Shown one piece after another: positions 7,254 through 58,512 of a stretch of DNA of 64,000 nt. The DNA is taken from the NCBI RefSeq assembly GCF_032884065.1, contig NC_088865.1, positions 43,223,152-43,287,151 on the forward strand, in the 5' to 3' direction. Source of the DNA: Artemia franciscana. Its lineage: Eukaryota > Arthropoda > Branchiopoda > Anostraca > Artemiidae. A program made the position numbers and the translations under genes. The notes below the pieces were generated by a model, which saw only the letters and a program-made list of their open reading frames with translations, ran no database searches and was not told the origin of the DNA. Each line of letters starts with the position of its first letter. The first letter of the stretch is position 1.

Positions 7254-7655
7254 TCAAAAATGTTCTCAAAAGGACAGGAAGGCCCATATAGTTTATAATT
7301 TTACTCGCAGTTGAGATCTCATTGTTGCTAAATGTATATTTATTACACTTTTCAGGAACAAGGGTTCTTCGTGGAAGCTGGAGCATTTCAAAAATGTTCT
7401 CAAAAGGACAGGAAGGCCCAGATAGTTTATAATTTTACTCGCAGTTGAGATATCATTGTTGATAAATTTATATTTATTACACTTTTCAGGAACAAGGGTT
7501 CTTCGTGGAAGCTGGAGCATTTCAAAAATGTTCTCAAAGGACAGGAAGGCCCATATAGTTTATAATTTTACTCGCAGTTGAGATATCATTGTTGATAAAT
7601 TTATATTTATTACACTTTTCAGGAACAAGGGTTCTTCGTGGAAGCTGGAGCATTT
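7254..7655 (+). repeat. Three tandem 133-134 bp units, each with a 3' splice site and the first bases of the FkbM exon
   Basis: Units start at 7254, 7388 and 7522. Each contains the intron end (TATTTATTACACTTTTCAG), acceptors at 7355, 7489 and 7622, and the first ~32 exon bases (EQGFFVEAGA). The first two copies then jump back into TCAAAAATGTTCTC. Only the third continues into the true exon. The copies differ at only a few bases, so the duplication is young. Confidence 0.93.
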
Positions 7656-8150
7656 GATGGTGAATTTTCCTCAAACACCCTATATATGGAGCGAGCTTTA
7701 AACTGGACTGGGATACTCATAGAGCCAGATCCTTTCAATTTCTCATTGCTAAAGCAGAAACAAAGAAAGTCATGGTTACTGCCTGCATGCCTCAGTCCTT
7801 TCAAGTATCCTGTAAAATCGAAATTCATTAAAGATTTGTTGAACAGCAGACTTGGTGAACTTGAGGATTCGATCACTGTTCAATGTTTTCCTCTGACTTC
7901 AATACTCCTTGCGTTAAATGCGACTCAAGTAGATTTTTTAAGTTTGGATGTAGAAGGGGCAGAGATGGGAATACTAAGCAACCTCAACTGGAATCTGCTA
8001 AAAATTAAATCAATGACGGTTGAACATCGATATATAAAAGAGGGAACTCAAGCACTTAAAGATTTCATGCAAACTAAAGGATTCATGATGATGAAAAGAT
8101 TGCGTGGCAGATTCGTTGATGATTATATTTTCATCAACTATTTGTATTAA
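7623..8150 (+). CDS. FkbM-type methyltransferase domain / Star-like protein, terminal exon (partial gene)
   Basis: An open frame starts directly after the 3' splice site TTTTCAG|GAA (7620-7622) and runs 175 codons to TAA at 8148-8150. It begins EQGFFVEAGAFDGEFSSNTL and continues YMERALNWTG-ILIEPDP, LPACLSPF, FPLTSILLALNATQVDFLSL and DVEGAEMGIL, ending in DDYIFINYLY. These are the hallmarks of the arthropod FkbM (Methyltransf_21) domain in Star-like proteins: the GFF-EAGA-DGE loop, LIE-DP, and D-SLDVEG-E. Fly Star is a membrane protein that helps export EGF-receptor ligands; whether this copy does so is unknown. The N-terminal exons, with the expected membrane segment, were not found. The exon looks intact, with no stop or frameshift. 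It follows a triplicated splice-site array. Confidence 0.82.
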   Translation, partial: EQGFFVEAGAFDGEFSSNTLYMERALNWTGILIEPDPFNFSLLKQKQRKSWLLPACLSPFKYPVKSKFIKDLLNSRLGELEDSITVQCFPLTSILLALNATQVDFLSLDVEGAEMGILSNLNWNLLKIKSMTVEHRYIKEGTQALKDFMQTKGFMMMKRLRGRFVDDYIFINYLY

Positions 8151-36900: not shown

Positions 36901-39900
36901 AGGCGTTGAATCTTTCACTTGTTGTCTTTTTTAAATGTATAGGTAGCAGGCCTGTCACCCGGCCTTAGGGTAGCAGGAATCGAGCCCCTAACTCCATATT
37001 GGCAAAGAGAGCATCAAGCCACCGTGATACAGGGTGTTGCCACGTTGAACCGTTAAAACAAATAAGCAACACTAGTTAGCTGAACTTAACAACGCTTTTC
37101 ATCTTTAAAAATTCTATCAATTACTATCTGTTGATTCCCAGAGGCAACTAATCCTTCAAAGGAAGGCTACACCTCAAGCAGTATGCTACCATCGGTTTTT
37201 GGCTTATATATTTCTTTATTTTTTCTTTTTAATTTGGTACCCAATACCACCAGAAACTGCATATAGAGGTCTTTTTAATTAAAACTGAATTTCCAACTAC
37301 ATTTATGTATGGTTGTTGAAGTTTTCAATTAACCAATTCCAATCGGACTTCAATGTCACTGTCCTTAGTGCTTCAATATGCCACATTCAGTTTTTCAAAC
37401 CATACTGACGAAAACTAACTCAACCTAGCAGCATCGAGGTTGATCGTGCAGCTCTAATTGGACCAGCAAAATGCTACTGTATGTTAGAGGGTATACATTG
37501 TGAGGCATATTATATATTGAAAGATGGATTTAAAAAAAATTCAGTTACCATGGTTATTCAAAAGACATCATATGACGCATTTTGCCATACAAAAATTAGC
37601 TTGTAAAAATGAAAAAAATTGCAACAAGCCGGTTGACATCTCATATAATAACTGACACTGATTTTGTATTCTGTTAATCTCTTTTCAGTTTGTACACAAC
37701 CTTCGAATTTGAGTTTTAAGGTTATGCCCTTCCTCCCTCCCCATGTCCCGAAATAAAAAATATTCTGGGAACTTGTTGTTTTTTTAAGAATAACAGGGAA
37801 ATACTCTAAGTAGAATATATTCCAAATTAAGACACATTCAAAAAAAAATTTCAATCAGGCAAAGTGTATCCTCAACGTCTTTAAGATGGTCAAACTAAAA
37901 GAAACTCAGTCTATTTATCATCACTATACAGCAATGGAAAAGTTTTTATGAAAACACACAAATCAAATATGTTATTGACTGCCAAACCAATAATAAGGAC
38001 GAAGCTTTTAAAGGTTATTTTGGAGATTTTTATAGGTGGTTAGTAAATTATTCTTTACTTTACTTATTTCTTACTACTCTCAATTTTATGGTAAGGCAAA
38101 CTCATAAACTATGGGTCCAGACTCAAGCCTAAAATACCCACCACTTTCTCACCTCCCCCACCCCAAAAAAAGAAAAATCAACCAAAAAAAAAAAGGTTTT
38201 CGAATTTACAACAGAAGCCAATTAAAGTTAGTCGACTCCAACCTTCTAATATACCTGACTCAATAAAATTGCATCTTGAATTAAATAATAAGACTCAGTA
38301 ATAATAAATTGCATCTTGAATTGAATCATAAGCCTCAGTAATAATAAATTGCATCTTGAATTGAATCATAAGCCTCAGTAATAGTAACCGAAGACAGGAG
38401 TAGATAATAAGACAGTAACAATAAACAGCATTAACTGTTAAGAGCAAAACAAAAAGGAAGAGAGCTTGGTCTTGGGTAAGCTTCTAAAAAGTAAGGAACA
38501 ACAGCTTATGCAGTTAGAATTACCATTCCTCCAATATTTATAAAATGAAGTCAAAAGATTTTGCTTAGCTTCTTCTCACTCAACCCCTTCGCTTCATTGT
38601 CTACTCAGATATAAAATAATATTTTATATAATCACACAACTCTAGAACTAGAGAAGCAAAAGGACAAAAAATATCCATCCTTTTGAACTCTAGGAATTGT
38701 TATAAGTGTTCTAAGAACGTTGTGCTTTCAAGTAAAACTAAAGAACTACTTGGGACATTTAAAAAAGACAAGTTTTTCCACTGTAGCCTATCACACGGAT
38801 TTTTTATTTGTTTCCAGAAACGGATTAACAGCAAGTATTTAAAGAGAAAATAAGGTGTTACTGAAGTATTCAGGCAGTTAAAATTCAATTCAAGACTTAC
38901 CATTTAGAAATTCAATAACATCTTCTTTGGTTGCACCAAATGGTAGTCCTCGGAGCCTGACACAGAACTCGTCAAAGCTGGTTTTGTTGCTTTTATTTAG
39001 CACCCATTGCATCTCGGACTTCGATGACTTGAAAACTGTAATAAAGTTGCTTTAAAACAGACATACATCACTTTTGAAACAGAACAAGGTGCTACCACTT
39101 GAAAATGGAAAGGGGACAGTTAGAAACCTCAGACTCAATTTTTTTTTCTCTTGATGGTGGCTGAAATTTTCAGGTCAGAACCCATCAGGTAGAATTTTAT
39201 TAGTACCAATTGCAACCATTAGCACCATTTTATTTAGCACCCATTGCATCTCAGACTTGGATGACTTGAAAACTGTAATAAAGTTGCTTTAAAACAGACA
39301 TACATCACTTTTGAAACAGAACAAGGTGCTACCACTTGAAAATGGAAAGGGGACAGTTAGAAACCTCAGACTCAATTTTTTTTCTCTTGATGGTGGCTGA
39401 AATTTTCAGGTCAGAACCCATCAGGTAGAATTTTATTAGTACCAATTGCAACCATTAGCACCATTTTATTTAGCACCCATTGCATCTCAGACTTGGATGA
39501 CTTGAAAACTGTAATAAAGTTGCTTTAAAACAGACATACATCACTTTTGAAACAGAACAAGGTGCTACCACTTGAAAATGGAAAGGGGACAGTTAGAAAC
39601 CTCAGACTCAGTTTTTTTTTCTCTTGATGGTGGCTGAAATTTTCAGGTCAGAACCCATCATGTAGAATTTTATTAGCACCCATTGCACCCATTAGCACCA
39701 TTTTATTTAGCACCCATTGCATCTCGGACTTGGATGACTTGAAAACTGTAATAAAGTTGCTTTAAAACAGACATACATCACTTTTGAAACAGAACAAGGT
39801 GCTACCACTTGAAAATGCAAAGGGGACAGTTAGAAACCTCAAAGACTCAATTTTTTCTCTCCTGATGGTGGCTGAAATTTTCAGGTCAGAACCCATCAGG

Positions 39901-42900
39901 TAAAATTTTAATTAATTATGCGATACTAAATATTAATTAAGTTAACAAATTTAATGGGCAATAAAATTAATCTTATAACTAATTTTAATTTAAGTAAGTA
40001 AAATTTATATTATACTTAAGTTTCAATTAATTAATTATACTGGCTTAAGTTTTCAAATAGAATTTCAACTAACTACATTAAGCTAAGTTTTAATTGATCT
40101 AATTATTCAATTTCTGTTTAATTACCTAAATTTATATCACACTAGAATTCAAATTCATTCATTAAATTGGCATAAAATTTTACACTCGGGGTTGTAAAAC
40201 CAATCAAGCTTTGAAAAGGCAAGAGAATAATAGAAAAACCAATCAGGCCAATCTTAACTGTTTCTTCTTTTTGCTGAAATTAAATAAACAATTAAGTTCT
40301 ACTGAAAGTAAGAAGCAATATTAAAACTTAAAATGAGCAGAAATAATTCTTTATGAGGGGGACTGCTCCCTCCTCTAAGCCCCCCCCTCTCTATGCTATT
40401 TTTTAGTACTTTTAAACCAATTATATTCAAAAGCTATTTTTAAACCGGTTCTGATTCTAAGTAAATGGCCTTTGGGTTTCAAGAACTGAGACAAAATGTT
40501 GAATTTAAGTGTAAAGAGCAGGGTATAGAGAAGGGGATAGCCATCCTCCTTATCCATGGGAAATTCATCCCAAAAAAAAACTCCTTCATAGTAGTTCCCT
40601 CAAAGTTCATCCATCAAAGTAAAATCCTTCCTCCGGGAAATTACCCCATGATAATTCCATCCTTGCTGAGAACACCCCTAAGGAGATTTCATACAGACCA
40701 TTCCACCTAAAAAAAAACTCCTTAGCATACTTTCATTTAAAAACTTGTTTTTATTCAATTTCTGATCGTTTTTAGGAAAATTTCGTTTTTGAGCAGAAAA
40801 TTTCTCTAAAACAAAAAAAAATGTCTGTACACTTTTCAATAGCAAATACTATATGTAAACAACAGACAAATTTCATAAATTTTAACCCATCATCCAGGGT
40901 ATATAGGAAGGCATGTCATTCAGAACGATACTGCTAATGGGTCTCTCAACTATACAAAACAAAATGGTTATTTTAAAATACTGACTGAACAACTTTGGAG
41001 AAAAAAAAGAGCATGAGAGGGGGGCTAGCTGCCCTCCAATTTTTCGGTCACTTAAAAAGACCATTAGAACTTCTAATTTCTGTTCGAATGGGCCCTTCCC
41101 CAATCTTATAGAACCACTGATTTGATACAATTACACCTGGGAAGAACAAAAATAAAATCCTTAACATTTGAGGAATGTTTTCTCTTTTCGAAAATCGGGC
41201 AATCTTTCTTAAACCTGTAGCTTTTGACGGGTAGCATTGAAATTAATTAATCTTATGTAGTTGGAATCCGCATAAAAAACCAATTATGTTGATATATCTA
41301 TTGTTGTCAAAATTCTGTCTTTTAGAGTCCCTGTTTCTTTTTAGTTTTTTTTTTTACCAAAAACTGTTTGACATCATGGTGAATACCCTTGATGTATAAG
41401 AAAAACAATCTTATAAGTTTTATCTCATATTTATAATTTAACTCAAGTTATTACCAATCATCATAAAAAGGCATGGCTATTGGCTCCTTTCTGGGGTACA
41501 ATTAACTGCTATGTTGTTACTGAATTAAATATCAAAAGGAACAAACAAACCCATGCGCTACTGTTCATATTCAAGTTTTAAAAATTGGTGGGTCAAGAAG
41601 GCCTACCAGGTCTAGAAGAGTTTGGGCACTGGACCACAAAGTACCGCCATCAAAATACTAAGAGGGCATTAAACCCAAATGGTTAAGTTTCTCTTTCAAA
41701 TCATCCCAGCAGTCAGATCCAGAAAGTCATTTACCCAAAAAACACATGAATAGAAGTTCAATCAGCTTTTTAGATTCCAAATTTATAAATACAAACTAGA
41801 AACTATACCTCTCTTGCAGATAACCACAGCTAAGAGCTCATATGGAACTTTTGATGAGGCCAGAAGAGCCACGAGCCTGGTTCTCATATGGTATGAGCTC
41901 TAGCAAAATCATAAGAATCAATAGATTCATTTAAAAGGAAAATCAGGGACTTAATGCTGGTCAGGATTTAAAATAATAGCTCTGAGTCACGAAATCCTCC
42001 TAAATATCAAAATTCATTAAGATCTGACCACCCACTTGTAAGTTATAAATACCTCATTTTTTCTCTCCCTTCAGTCCCCCAGATGATCGAATCGGGGAAA
42101 ACGACTTTATCAAGTCAATTTGTGCAGCTCCCTGACACGCCTACCAATTTTCATTGTCCTAGCACGTCCAGAAGCACCAAACTCACCAAAGCACAGAACC
42201 CCACCTCCTAACTCCCCCAAAGAGACCAAATCCAATCCGGTTACGTCAATAACGTATCTACAACATTTGCTTATTCTACTTAAGTTTCAACCCAATCTCT
42301 CTACTCTAAGCATTTTCCAAGATTTCCAGTTTCCCCCTCCAACTCCCCCCACTGTCAACAGATCTGGTCGGGATTTGAAATAAGAGCTCTGGGACATGAG
42401 TTCCTTCTAAATATCTAATTTCATTAAGATCTGGTTACCCATTCTAAGTTAAAATTACCTCAATTTTTCTGTTTTTTTTTTTCAAGTTAACACTTCCCAG
42501 CTACCCCAAAGAGAATGGATCCGTTCCAATTATGTCAATCATGTATCCATAGCTTGTGCTTATTCTTCCCATAAAGTTTCATCCCTATCTCTCCACTCTA
42601 AGCATTTTCCAAGATTTGTTTCCCCCCTCCAGCTCCCTATGTCCCCGAATCCGATTCGGATTGAAAATGGAGCATCTGAGACATAAGATCCTTCCATATA
42701 TCAAGTTTCATTAAGATTAAATCACCCATTCATAAGACAAAGATACCTCAATGTTCACATTTTTGAAGAATTCCAGTTTCCCCCTCCAACTCCCCCCAAT
42801 GTCACCAGACCTGGTCAGGATTTAAAAATAGGACTCTAAAGCACAGGATCTTTTTAAATATTGAATTTCATTCAGATCTGATCACCCATTCATAAGTTAC

Positions 42901-45900
42901 AAATACCTTGTTTTTTCTAAGTTTTCTGAATTACCCCCCCCCCCTAATTCACCCAAAGAGAGTGGATCCGGTAATGTCAGTCATGTATCTTGGACTTGTA
43001 CTTATTCTTCCCACCCATTCTCATCCTGATCTCTCTGCTTTAAGCATTTTCCAAGATTTCTGCCCCCCCCCCCAATGACACTGGATCTGGTCAGTATTTA
43101 AAATAAGAGATCCGAGTTACGAAGTCCTTCTAAATATTAAATTTCATTAAGATCTGATCACTCTCCTGTAAATTAAAAATACCTCATTTTTTGAGAATTA
43201 AACCCCCCCCAACTCCCCCAAAGAGAGCAGATCCATTCCAGTCATGTCAATCATGTATCTAGGACTTGTGCTTGTTTTTCCCACGAAGTTTCATCCTGAT
43301 CTCTCCATTCTAAGCATTTTCCAAGATTTTAGGTTTCCCCACCCCACTCCCCCCAGTGGATCTGGTCAGGATTTAAAATAAGAGCTCTGAGACACGATAT
43401 CCTTCTAAATATCAAATTTCATTAAGATCCAATCAGTTAAAAATACCTCATATTTTCTTATTTAAACATCCCCCCACTCCCCCCCCAGATAGTCGAATTG
43501 GGGAAACAACAATTTCTAATTTAATATGGTCTGGTTCCTGATATGCTTGCCAAATTTCATTGTCCTAGCTTACCTGGAAGTGCCTAAAATAGCAAAACTG
43601 GGAAAAACAGACCAACCAAATTTGCAATCTCTATATGTCACTTGGTAGATACTAAGTGCCATAAAAATGGTAACTAGCATAAAAACGTCTATTATACATG
43701 AGATTGCAATGAACTAGTTCACTCCTAAGGTCACCAAAAAGGCCAATGACTGGTCAATAATGAGACTAACTAATCCTCAGACCTGGAATTTTCCCCACTC
43801 TGATGGATGATACCAATACCACCAACATCCTTTTCCTCATGAGCTAACATTCAAAGTGAATTATAACTATTACTATTTTGTAATCCAGTCTAAATGTAGA
43901 TTATAACCCAAAATGATGGTAAGTGTTGCTACTATTTTGCAAAACCCCACTAAGGATAACATGGGACACAATTTAGAAAGTCCAAGGCTGTTGCCATGGC
44001 TCTCACTGTAACTAATTAAATGAACAGGTTGAAGGGATGTACTATAATCAAAACCCTTTAGATTTTATTAAGACATTATCTTTCTCAGGAAACCAGACTC
44101 ATTTTCATCTTAAATATGCTCCCAATGAGAACAAAGTCATATTGCCATAGGAACCGGAACAAACTTTCTTAAAATTGCAAACTGGTATATCAAAAAGACA
44201 TTCATTAACTATGAAAGAGTAGAAAGGATCCCAACAGCAGTACAAGGGCCAATACCTTACCTGGTCTTCTAGAACAACAATGATAATCTTTTAAGAATTA
44301 CCACCAAGCTAAGGCTTTGTTTAAATTTATTGAAAAAAAAACTCATTCAAGGTTATTACACACCAAATAATACTTAGTATAAGTATACCTGTAAAAGTAT
44401 GCCACTTGGTAAATACCAAGTGCCATAATAATTGGAATATTGGTATCATTTGCTTTGTAAATTTAAATGGAAACAGCCAAAAAGTTTTTTTTTCATGAAA
44501 TACTACACTTCATATTTACCCCCACATTTCCTTTGTTTGAGTTCTCCACCCATACCACAAGATAGTTGCCAGCTCAATAGAGCCTAATCTAAAATACAAC
44601 CTAAATTTAAACTATAATGGGGAAGGTTATAACCTGAAAAACCCCATGTTTCCCCCCTTTTTTCATGATGAGTTTAAGCCTTCTATCCCATTAGCAAATA
44701 TGATCTCATTGGAAGAGTAACTTTTCCTGTATAAGCATGCTTAGTATAGGTATAAGTATAATACACAGTATACAAATAATACCATGCTTGTCATAAAAAA
44801 AGGACAAGCACATCATGCTTATCATTTTATCAGACAATATCAGAAAAGAAACAGCTTTCAATTGAATGTTCTTTTAATGTTTCTGCAAAAAAAGACAATA
44901 CCTTCAATGTATCTATTGCCCATATGCTCCTTGTTTTTCTTCAGAGCATGATCTAGGTCTTCTTGGGTTTCCAACTCAACATATGCTTCACCAGTTGCCC
45001 TTCCTTCTCTTGTTGTTGTTAAATGAACACCTTCTTCAGCTCCTCCAGCTATGTTCATGTCACCTAGAAAAGAGGTCATTGAAGGATTTATCATGTAGTT
45101 GGATTACCCAGGTGAGCTAAAAATTATTACAATAAAGGTCTTATTCCATTATACTCAGCAGTATTTGAATCATAGTTATAAGAGCTTTTAGTTATATTTA
45201 GTGTAATCTATCAGAGAAGAAGGGTTTAATCTGTTGCTTGACTTGCCATTGTAAACAACATCTTGAAAAATGTAGTTCAATCCCACTTTCAAGGGACATA
45301 CTAAAGGAAAGATTAGATGGCTAGACCATATTTTATAAATGAAGGATGACATATCACCTGAAAATGAATCTCAGATTCAGGTTGAAATTATGATTGTAGA
45401 GGAAGTTTATTTCTTGGCTATCTTAATATTCTGTTAACATAAATATTTACCAGGAATTTCTTCTTATATAATTAGCCTACTGAATTGTCAATTAGCATAA
45501 GAAAAGGGACCAAGTGATGTATTCACCTTAGCTAAATTATGATGAAAACAGTAAATTCGCCTAAAATTCAGAAGGTAAGTCTATTTCTTAAACATCTGAA
45601 TTAAGAAATAACCAACAACTCTTCTGAAGGACTTGATAATTTAATTATGTGAGAAAGATAATATCACTCAATTTCCTAAATTGATGCCCTTTAGAAATAC
45701 ATTTGATACTTTCATTGCACTCCCTTCCCTCTAATAATTATATCCTAATAGTATTACATAAAAACAAATCTATACAAACTATACTAATGAAGTTCAGCAA
45801 AATTCTAATTCAGCTATTTTTCACTATTTCAGAAAGGGGCCACATTAGGAGAATGGAACTTTCAGGGATGGGTCTACAGGCTAAAATTATGTTCCAGGAA

Positions 45901-50765: not shown

Positions 50766-53229
50766 AAGATAGAAATAGGGATAGATGGTATCCTAGCCTA
50801 GGTAAATTTGGTGTAGGAAAAGAAAACAGTAATGGCTATAGGCTTTTGCAATTTTGTAGGTATAACAACCTAGTTATAACCAATACGGTGTTTGGTCACA
50901 AAATGGCCCATAAGTTGACATGGTATTCACGTGATGGTAAGACAGCAAACCTTATTGTAAACAGAAGACTAGCAGGATCAATACAAGAAACTAGGGTGTA
51001 TAGGAGTGCTGTTATTGATGTTAAAAGTAAAGATCACCATCTAGTAGTGTCTAAGGTTAATTTAAAGCCGAAATTTCGGAAGGGTAACTCCCTCCCGGAA
51101 AGTTATAATGTTGGTAGACTTCAGGATGAAAATTTTAGAAAAAATTCCAGGAACAGTTGAGTACTAAACTTGAGGGTTTAAAATTTGACAATGTGGAAGA
51201 TGGATGGAATAATTTCAGAAAAACAATTTGTGAAGTTGCTGATGGTGTCCTAGGGAAGAGTGCTAAGACTGCAACTAGGAATATTAGTGAAAAAGCTTTA
51301 GGTTTAATAGAGAGTAGAAGGGGTTTGTATAAGTATTATCTGAGTGATAGGTCGTATGAAAACAAAAGGAATGTAAAGAAAGTGGAGAAGGCATTAAAAT
51401 ATGAACTAAGGAGATGTGAAGTGGAGGCCATGGATAAAATTGCTGAGGATCTGGAAGATGCGGCTAGACGGCATAATAGTAAAATATTATGCTGGCATGT
51501 TAATAAATTGAAAGGGAGTAGCCAATCCGGACTAGTCCCAGTTAAAGATAGAAATGGGGCCACACTTAGTGATAAGGAAAAAGTTAAAGAAAGATGGGTG
51601 GAACATTTTGAGAATGTGCTAAACCGAGATACAGTTGCAGGAAAAGATATAGATGAAAATGAAAAAGTTTGTGATACCTTGGATGTGAAGGAAGATTTGT
51701 TTAGTGAGGAAGAATTAGCGACAGTACTAAATGGATTAAAAAATAATAAGGCCCCAGGTGCTGATAATATGATTAATGAGTTTCTTAAATATGGTGGCTC
51801 TGAGGTTAGGAAGAAGCTACTGAAGATTATGAACATGATTTTTGAAAAAGGGTCAGTACCCAATGATGTTAGGAAAACCTTAATCAAACCACTGTATAAG
51901 AAAGGTGACAGAAGTGAGTGTCGTAATTATCGAGGCATTAGTCTGGTCTCTGTAGGTAGCAAATTACTGAGTAATATGATACTTTTTAGACTGAGACATG
52001 CTGTAGACAAAGTTTTAAGGGAAGAACAATGCGGTTATAGAAAAGGTAGAGGATGTGTCGACCATGTTTTCACTCTTAGGTTAATAATTGAGAAGTCCCT
52101 TCGTTGTCAAACACCTTTGGTCCTTAGTTTTATCGATTATGAGCAAGCTTTCCATTCTGTTGATAGAACAGCGTAAACAAAGGTCTTATCGTTATATGGT
52201 ATACCAGAAAAATACATTAAAGTGATTTCCGCTATGTACGAGAATAATACTGCTTCGGTTAAGGTAGGAAATGAGGTTAGCAACTGGTTTTGTATTAAAT
52301 CAGGAGTTAAGCAGGGTTGTGTTCTATCCCCCTTTATATGGATCATTTTGATGGACTTCGTCTTAAGGAGCACAGGAAAGGCAATTGGAGACCATGGAAT
52401 CAAATGGGGAGGAAGAACGCTCCTGGACTTAGATTATGCTGATGATTTAAGCATATTAGATGAAAGTGTGAGCAAAATGAATGAATTTTTAGAGGTTTTA
52501 CGAGTTCGGGGTGCTAAAATAGGCTTGAAAATTAATGTTAAGAAGACTAAGTCACTAAGGCTAGGAATAAGTGAAGATGAACAGGTGACATTAGGTAACG
52601 AAAAGATTGATCAGGTTGGGAGCTTCAGTTACCTTGGTAGTATTATTAGCAAAGATGGTGGGAGCAGTGAAGATGTTAAAAGTAGAATAGCTAAAGCTCA
52701 GGGTGTTTTTTCACAGTTAAAAAAAGTTTGGAAGAATAGAAAGATAAGTCTACAAACCAAGATTAGAATATTGGAAGCTACAGTGATGACAGTGGTCAAA
52801 TATGGCTCTGAAGCGTGGGCACTCCGAAAAGCAGATGAAAATTTACTAGATGTTTTCCAGAGAAATTGCCTACGGATTATTCTGGGTACCCGGCTGACTG
52901 ACCGTATTTCAAACGGTAGGTTGTACGAAAAGTGTGGTTCAATCCCGCTTTCTGGGGCTATAATGACAGAAAGGTTGAGATGGCTAGGCCACGTTCTACG
53001 GATGAAGGATGACAGATTACCGAAGATTGTCCTTTTTGGCCAACCGTCTGGGGCTACACGGAAAGCAGGTCGTCCTTGTCTGGGTTGGGAGGATGTCATA
53101 AATAAAGATTTAAAGGAAATGGGAACTTCCTGGGAGGGTGTAAAGAGGGAGGCTTTAAATAGATTAGGTTGGAGGAGGAGTGTGCGTAGCTGTGTTGGCC
53201 TCAGGCGGCTTGGTGCTGCAGTGAGTTAT

Positions 53230-53261
<32 letters not shown>
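50766..53261 (+). mobile_element. RTE-clade LINE, 5'-truncated, nearly intact, with (TAG)n tail
   Basis: The C-terminal part of the endonuclease (NGYRLLQFCRYNNLVITNT, then LTWYSRDGKTAN, KDHHLVVSK) is followed by a reverse transcriptase and a C-terminal domain ending AGRPCLGWEDVINKDLKEMG and GLRRLGAAVSY. The domain order and the very short microsatellite 3' end fit the RTE clade. The 5' end is lost inside the endonuclease. A (TAG)n run at 53230-53261 closes the element. I saw no clear target-site duplication. Confidence 0.9.
50846..53232 (+). pseudogene. RTE polyprotein with one frameshift and one in-frame stop
   Basis: The endonuclease end (50846-51160) and the reverse transcriptase (from 51157) are in different frames, because one extra A in an A-run near 51140 turns EN-FRKxFQEQL into a premature end. 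From 51157 to 53232 the frame is open except for TAA at 52174-52176. Reverse transcriptase motifs are intact: LKNNKAPGADNM, LYKKGDRSECRNYRGISLVS, QCGYRKGRGCVDH, FIDYEQAF (first catalytic Asp at about 52135), SGVKQGCVLSP and DYADDLSIL (52432-52458). The Asp of AFD is His (AFHSVD). The missing IDY in the endonuclease (DGKTAN-LIVNRR) is a small deletion. The damage is light, so the copy is young but dead. Confidence 0.88.
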
Positions 53262-58234: not shown

Positions 58235-58512
58235 AAAACGAATATATACCGGGATGACGACCGGGACACAGGGAATATAAATGACACAACTACAACGGGG
58301 ACGCCGGGGGGCACAGGGGGATATAAATGACGACCGGGACACCGGGACACAAGGAATATAAATGACGCCCGGGACACTCAAAGAGAAATCAGAGACTGGA
58401 ACACCGGGACACAAATGACGACCGGGACACAGGGAATATAAATGACGACCGGGACACAGGGACATAACTACAAAGGGGACGCCGGGGTGCACAGGGGGAT
58501 ATATAAATGACG
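58235..58512. repeat. G-rich minisatellite in the Helitron
   Basis: Repeats of ATATAAATGACGACCGGGAC and ACAGGGA with GGGGACGCCGGGG inserts. The reverse strand is open only because of the repeat. Confidence 0.9.

What the first reader, a model, noticed from the sequence alone, without database searches (positions are those of the whole stretch)
38991..39905. Four-fold array of 3' splice sites in front of hnRNP exon 3
A 236-237 bp unit spanning the intron 2 / exon 3 boundary is repeated four times. Each copy keeps the acceptor TTATTACAG and the first 45 coding bases in frame. Use of any of the three upstream acceptors without a later donor would add about 16 decoy codons and then reach a TGA, giving a protein with only qRRM1. 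The protein itself regulates splicing, so the array could act as a splice sink or autoregulatory poison exon. Equally, it may be neutral. The array is seen; the role is inference.
Basis: partly seen in the sequence, partly recalled or inferred. Interest (0 to 1): 0.72.

Follow-up and report, generated by a model that had tools for sequence, protein, structure and literature searches.

The report
Fourfold splice-acceptor repeat in brine shrimp
In what appears to be a brine shrimp gene for a splicing protein, the start of one exon and the splice signal before it occur four times in a row, most likely a harmless by-product of a genome full of local repeats rather than a regulatory switch.

Summary
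The array is real. Four units (238, 237, 236 bp, and a last one running into exon 3) lie on the minus strand at 38991-39910. Each holds the acceptor TTATTACAG and the first 45 nt of exon 3 of an hnRNP H/F gene. Copies differ by 2-6 substitutions and 0-2 indels. The search found one match in the held 1.27 Gb genome, which two scaffold lengths identify as Artemia franciscana.

Use of an upstream acceptor would lengthen exon 3 to 372, 608 or 845 nt, with a TGA 274-747 nt before its donor; decay of that mRNA is expected rather than a qRRM1-only protein. A discrete poison exon is not well supported but not excluded: the best GT in the array scores 0.81 (exon 3 donor 5.64, but exon 2 donor only 0.41).

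The same window holds a second acceptor-spanning array (7254-7655, three copies) at an FkbM-type methyltransferase exon. Tandem arrays cover about 4% of 130 kb sampled, but touched 0 of 30 RRM exons.

Best reading: near-neutral tandem duplication across an acceptor, one boundary kept intact, mis-splicing hidden by NMD. It resembles a published potato duplication, without its GTAAG donor. A splice sink is possible. RNA data would decide and were not available.

The parts
38991..39910 (-). Array of four acceptor-spanning units (238, 237, 236 bp, and a last one that runs into exon 3)
   Evidence: TRF; alignments; one match in own genome
39746..39754 (-). Decoy acceptor 1 (exon-like sequence starts at 39745)
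39509..39517 (-). Decoy acceptor 2 (exon-like sequence starts at 39508)
39273..39281 (-). Decoy acceptor 3 (exon-like sequence starts at 39272)
38901..39035 (-). Exon 3 of the hnRNP H/F gene (135 nt), with its native acceptor TTATTACAG and donor ATG|GTAAGT
   Evidence: protein match
44902..45063 (-). Exon 2; its donor AAG|GTATTG is weak by the matrix used (0.41)
39036..44901 (-). Intron 2 (5866 nt), which contains the three decoy copies
7254..7655 (+). Second acceptor-spanning array: three copies (134, 134, 133 bp) at an FkbM-type methyltransferase exon; exon-first bases 7356, 7490, 7623
   Evidence: paralogue with an AG at the corresponding codon, read by eye
7623..8147 (+). Exon of FkbM-type methyltransferase (Pfam PF05050, E 5.1e-14) that follows the last acceptor of the second array

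Best explanation
A tandem duplication copied a segment that crosses the intron 2 / exon 3 boundary, with a patch of templated filler at the joint, and the array later grew to four copies. The last copy keeps the whole exon, so the gene is intact. Most likely working state: the last acceptor is used, because only it has a strong donor at normal exon distance (exon definition across a 135 nt exon). Leaky use of the three upstream acceptors makes stop-bearing mRNAs that NMD removes. The array is then nearly neutral and persists by drift. Shown: copies, divergence, frames, stops, no strong donor in the array, high tandem-array load of the genome, a second such array. Inferred: acceptor choice, NMD, neutrality.
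For: The joint filler copies the adjacent exon piece: 32 of 38 bases lie in blocks of 7 or more shared with it; 0 of 5000 single-base shuffles reach this. Tandem arrays of period 50-500 cover 4.3% of 13 sampled 10 kb pieces and 4.6% of the window. A second acceptor array, in another gene, sits in the window. No GT in the array scores above 0.81; the exon 3 donor scores 5.64. Each decoy has a TGA 274-747 nt before the exon 3 junction. Variable sites show no firm constraint on the acceptor core: 9 events in 201 columns, longest invariant run 85, P 0.06; 2 of 9 events in -40..+45, P 0.19. Second array: P 0.43 for the longest run.
Against: The stretch -71 to +13 is identical in all four copies, borderline as a sign of constraint (P 0.06). 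Both exon differences are synonymous. The exon 2 donor (0.41) scores below the best GT in the array (0.81), so donor strength by this recalled matrix does not rule out decoy exons. Tandem copies touched 0 of 30 RRM exons and are scarcer within 500 bp of them (1.8%) than in the outer 1000 bp of each flank (6.0%), so arrays on exon boundaries are not simply common. Two of six acceptors in one window exceed the base rate (P 0.004-0.028), though one was the given finding; for at least one of the other five P is 0.08-0.21. No RNA data were seen.
Confidence: 0.68

Rival explanations
1. Splice sink: the three upstream acceptors compete with the native one and divert part of the pre-mRNA into stop-bearing transcripts (extended exon 3, or decoy exons of 205-206 nt ending at a weak GT), setting or autoregulating hnRNP H/F levels.
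For: All four acceptors are identical from -71 to +13, so a local acceptor model scores them alike. The intron 2 donor is weak (0.41) and exon 3's pyrimidine tract is modest (11 of 19; five other acceptors 9-15). Each unit has GAT|GTATGT (0.81), which would end a stop-bearing decoy exon of 205-206 nt; the next acceptor is only 31 nt away, so it would have to join a later one. Decoy stops lie 274-747 nt before the exon 3 junction. In C. elegans the hnRNP F/H gene hrpf-1 has a regulated exon whose isoform ratio changes in NMD mutants (PMC2265522, passages).
Against: No strong donor in the array. G-runs not enriched over the rest of intron 2. The FkbM-type gene, not a splicing-factor gene by its Pfam match, has the same architecture. 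A human survey of autoregulatory splicing does not name HNRNPH or HNRNPF in its main text (PMC6547761, term search of that text).
Confidence: 0.16
2. Intron gain in progress, as in potato RdRp: upstream copies act as extra small exons joined through new donors taken from the duplicated exon or filler.
For: Same duplicated architecture as PMC4974935 (abstract and Results section). The first decoy has an open, in-frame GT at exon length 57.
Against: Open-frame GTs between a decoy acceptor and its stop score -2.04 or lower with the matrix used (ranked list), whereas the potato case used GTAAG.
Confidence: 0.05
3. Assembly artefact: the true copy number is lower and the extra units come from mis-joined long reads.
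For: No reads were inspected; published contig N50 is 383 kb (PMC11492255, passages).
Against: Copies differ by 2-6 substitutions of about 198 positions plus 0-2 indels; the first joint differs from the other two; no N in the window; reported QV 47.62.
Confidence: 0.08

Closest known systems
Tandem duplication across the intron 1 / exon 2 boundary of the potato RdRp gene (PMC4974935; abstract and Results section read)
   Same: The duplicated unit holds the 3' end of an intron, with acceptor and pyrimidine tract, plus the 5' part of the next exon; copies differ by substitutions.
   Different: Potato has two copies and a new intron supported by RNA reads, with a GTAAG donor. Here there are four copies, no strong donor, and no RNA evidence.
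Alternative splicing and NMD of the hnRNP F/H homologue hrpf-1 in C. elegans (PMC2265522; passages read)
   Same: An hnRNP F/H gene of an invertebrate with alternative splicing whose isoform ratio changes in NMD mutants.
   Different: That is a cassette exon; here there are duplicated acceptors and no measured regulation.
NMD-shielded new introns in Drosophila (PMC2809761; abstract read)
   Same: Insertions with stops and weak splice sites are proposed to be hidden from selection by NMD, the reason suggested here for tolerance of the array.
   Different: No new intron is shown here.

Membership tests
Tandem duplication crossing an intron-exon boundary (potato RdRp kind) | Unit contains intron 3' end, acceptor and exon 5' part, in direct tandem | tested here: met
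Tandem duplication crossing an intron-exon boundary (potato RdRp kind) | Duplication is genuine (copies diverged, reads span it) | tested here: inconclusive
   2-6 substitutions of about 198 positions and 0-2 indels between copies; no reads seen
Tandem duplication crossing an intron-exon boundary (potato RdRp kind) | New donor recruited in the upstream copy, giving a new intron | tested here: inconclusive
   open-frame GTs score -2.04 or lower and the best GT 0.81, against 5.64 for the exon 3 donor but 0.41 for the exon 2 donor; matrix recalled
Autoregulatory poison exon | A discrete exon with its own acceptor and donor | tested here: inconclusive
   acceptors present; only weak GTs (best 0.81, reached by 231 of 3268 GTs)
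Autoregulatory poison exon | Inclusion puts a stop more than 50 nt before an exon junction | tested here: met
   274, 510 and 747 nt for extended exons
Autoregulatory poison exon | Binding sites of the own protein (G-runs) enriched | tested here: not met
   10.9 per kb against 12.2 in the rest of intron 2; introns 1 and 3-5 have 6.1-8.0
Autoregulatory poison exon | Isoform ratio follows protein level and NMD | not testable with these tools
   no RNA data available
hnRNP H/F | Quasi-RRM homology to solved hnRNP H/F domains | tested here: met
   exons 3, 4 and part of 5: 6dhs E 5.5e-49. Exon 1 and exon 6 pieces gave no Pfam hit alone; they are assigned by frame and by eye

The most novel reading that the evidence does not exclude
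Artemia franciscana carries many tandem arrays that cross splice acceptors (two in one 64 kb window, in unrelated genes). Such arrays form more often there than chance allows and are kept or used as graded splice sinks, so each is a natural acceptor-competition experiment with matched splice sites.
Probability: 0.15. Interest if true: 0.62.

Novelty: new member of a known kind. Interest (0 to 1): 0.32.

Why it matters
Four locally identical acceptors behind one donor in a native gene let one ask, with RNA data, whether position or the paired downstream donor decides acceptor choice. It also shows how a repeat-rich genome may tolerate duplication across splice sites. If a genome-wide survey found acceptor arrays beyond expectation, it would point to a duplication bias or to a simple route for tuning gene output.

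Tried and rejected
Poison exon with its own donor: held unlikely but not rejected, since the best GT in the array (0.81) beats the real exon 2 donor (0.41) by the matrix used; on rechecking this I moved the sink from 0.14 to 0.16 and the best reading from 0.70 to 0.68. Enriched G-runs: not seen against the rest of intron 2, though the array is above introns 1 and 3-5. Constraint on the acceptor core: an automatic alignment gave P 0.0024 with 15 events, but it had split one 2-nt indel; with 9 events P is 0.055 and, on a full hand alignment, 0.06; not claimed. Dispersed repeat: one match in the genome. Viral contigs, exact acceptor stretch: 0 matches. Rate at exon boundaries: only 30 of 149 listed RRM matches were fetched and tested, several of them near-duplicate pairs. 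Not run because the machine was busy: genome searches with the second array's DNA and with the hnRNP protein. Papers: searches looked for acceptor duplications and gave the potato case as the closest seen; and 57 hnRNP H/F regulation; 34 and 42 Artemia. A review (PMC7547044, passages) describes autoregulation by poison exon or intron retention for other hnRNPs; in the passages shown none is described for hnRNP H/F. Nothing outside that library was searched.

Full report
Observation. On the minus strand, 38991-39910 holds four direct copies of a 236-238 bp unit. Each carries TTATTACAG followed by the first 45 nt of exon 3. Between copies there are 2-6 substitutions of about 198 shared positions and 0-2 indels (hand alignment; the automatic one gave 2-12 because it misplaced an indel). 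The gene is hnRNP H/F: exons 3, 4 and part of 5 match solved hnRNP H (6dhs, E 5.5e-49), and six exons join into one open frame. Exons 1 and 6 gave no Pfam hit alone and are assigned by frame and by eye. Introns 1-5 are 2.4-9.8 kb.

Origin of the sequence. The window lies at C3:43223152-43287151 of a genome of 1,270,528,402 bases in 6468 contigs. Contig C2 is 67,337,973 bases and C17 is 45,252,357. These equal the longest scaffold and the scaffold N50 in Table 1 of the Artemia franciscana assembly paper PMC11492255 (passages seen). Not all agrees: the paper gives 1,270,721,445 bases in 6486 scaffolds, and C1 (71,465,782) is longer than its longest. The species is taken as A. franciscana, probably a revised release.

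What decoy use would do. Splicing exon 2 to an upstream acceptor gives 15 native codons, 17 foreign ones and TGA. The exon would be 372, 608 or 845 nt instead of 135, with the stop 274, 510 or 747 nt before the exon 3 junction. By the usual 50-55 nt rule (established knowledge) this predicts NMD.

Splice signals. The copies are identical from -71 to +13 of the acceptor, so local acceptor models cannot tell them apart. What differs is the donor. With a generic metazoan matrix (frequencies recalled), the exon 3 donor scores 5.64 and the best GT in the array 0.81, placed 31 nt before the next acceptor; 231 of 3268 GTs on that strand of the window reach 0.81. A caution: the six donors read in this gene range from 0.41 (exon 2) to 8.69, so the matrix does not exclude the array's GT. 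Under exon definition in a 5.9 kb intron the last acceptor should win (inference). G-runs, the hnRNP H/F target, are 10.9 per kb in the array, 12.2 in the rest of intron 2, and 6.1-8.0 in introns 1 and 3-5.

How it arose. The joint between copies carries about 38 nt of filler, 32 of which lie in blocks of 7 or more nt shared with the adjacent exon piece (0 of 5000 shuffles reach this). This suggests templated, microhomology-driven joining (inference). The first joint differs from the second and third, which are alike over the stretch printed, so the array probably grew in at least two steps.

Selection. Nine variable events in 201 columns leave an invariant run of 85 around the acceptor: P 0.06; 2 of 9 events lie in -40..+45 (P 0.19) and in -60..+45 (P 0.07). 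Both exon changes are synonymous. For the second array P is 0.43. Constraint on the decoys is neither shown nor excluded.

A second array. 7254-7655 (+) holds three units (134, 134, 133 bp), each with CACTTTTCAG and the first 33 nt of an FkbM-type methyltransferase exon (PF05050 E 5.1e-14). Both upstream copies run into stops. A paralogue on C15, one of 27 PF05050 matches, has an AG at the corresponding codon and, by eye, no second copy in the 251 bases read, which supports the acceptor. Its joints show no filler.

Base rate. Tandem arrays (period 50-500, 80% or more alike) cover 4.3% of 13 pieces of 10 kb taken at round-number positions on C1-C3, 2.9% of 70 kb near the window and 4.6% of the window. 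Of 30 RRM matches fetched (of 149 listed, not all independent), none had a tandem copy overlapping the match by 10 nt or more. Coverage was 0% in the matches, 1.8% within 500 bp and 6.0% in the outer 1000 bp of each flank. Two of six acceptors read in the window lie in arrays: P 0.004-0.028, or 0.08-0.21 for at least one besides the given one. This is suggestive, not firm.

Comparison. The potato RdRp case has the same duplicated architecture and gained an intron through a GTAAG donor (PMC4974935). Here no such donor was found. The C. elegans hnRNP F/H gene hrpf-1 shows that this family can be subject to alternative splicing affected by NMD (PMC2265522), which keeps the sink reading alive.

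Verdict. A real, genuine-looking array, most likely a near-neutral tandem duplication tolerated because one boundary stays intact and errors are degraded. A sink of unknown strength is possible. RNA junction counts would decide.

Noticed in passing
window 7254-7655 (+): Second acceptor-spanning tandem array, three copies of 133-134 bp, at an FkbM-type methyltransferase exon; a paralogue at C15 has an AG at the same codon and no second copy in the 251 bases read.
   Followed up: yes
window 51157-53232 (+): Two long open frames that look like a LINE-type reverse transcriptase (recalled resemblance, no search done).
   Followed up: no
window 58341-58464; also L007, L009, L010, L014: A tandem motif like ACCGGGACACAGGGAATATAAATGACG recurs, by eye, in several sampled places of the genome.
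   Followed up: no
window 38266-38387: A 40 bp unit repeated three times in intron 3 of the same gene, about 500 nt after exon 3.
   Followed up: no
window 44902 (-): The exon 2 donor AAG|GTATTG is weak (0.41 by the matrix used), and intron 2 has more G-runs (11.9 per kb) than the other four introns measured (6.1-8.0 per kb).
   Followed up: partly
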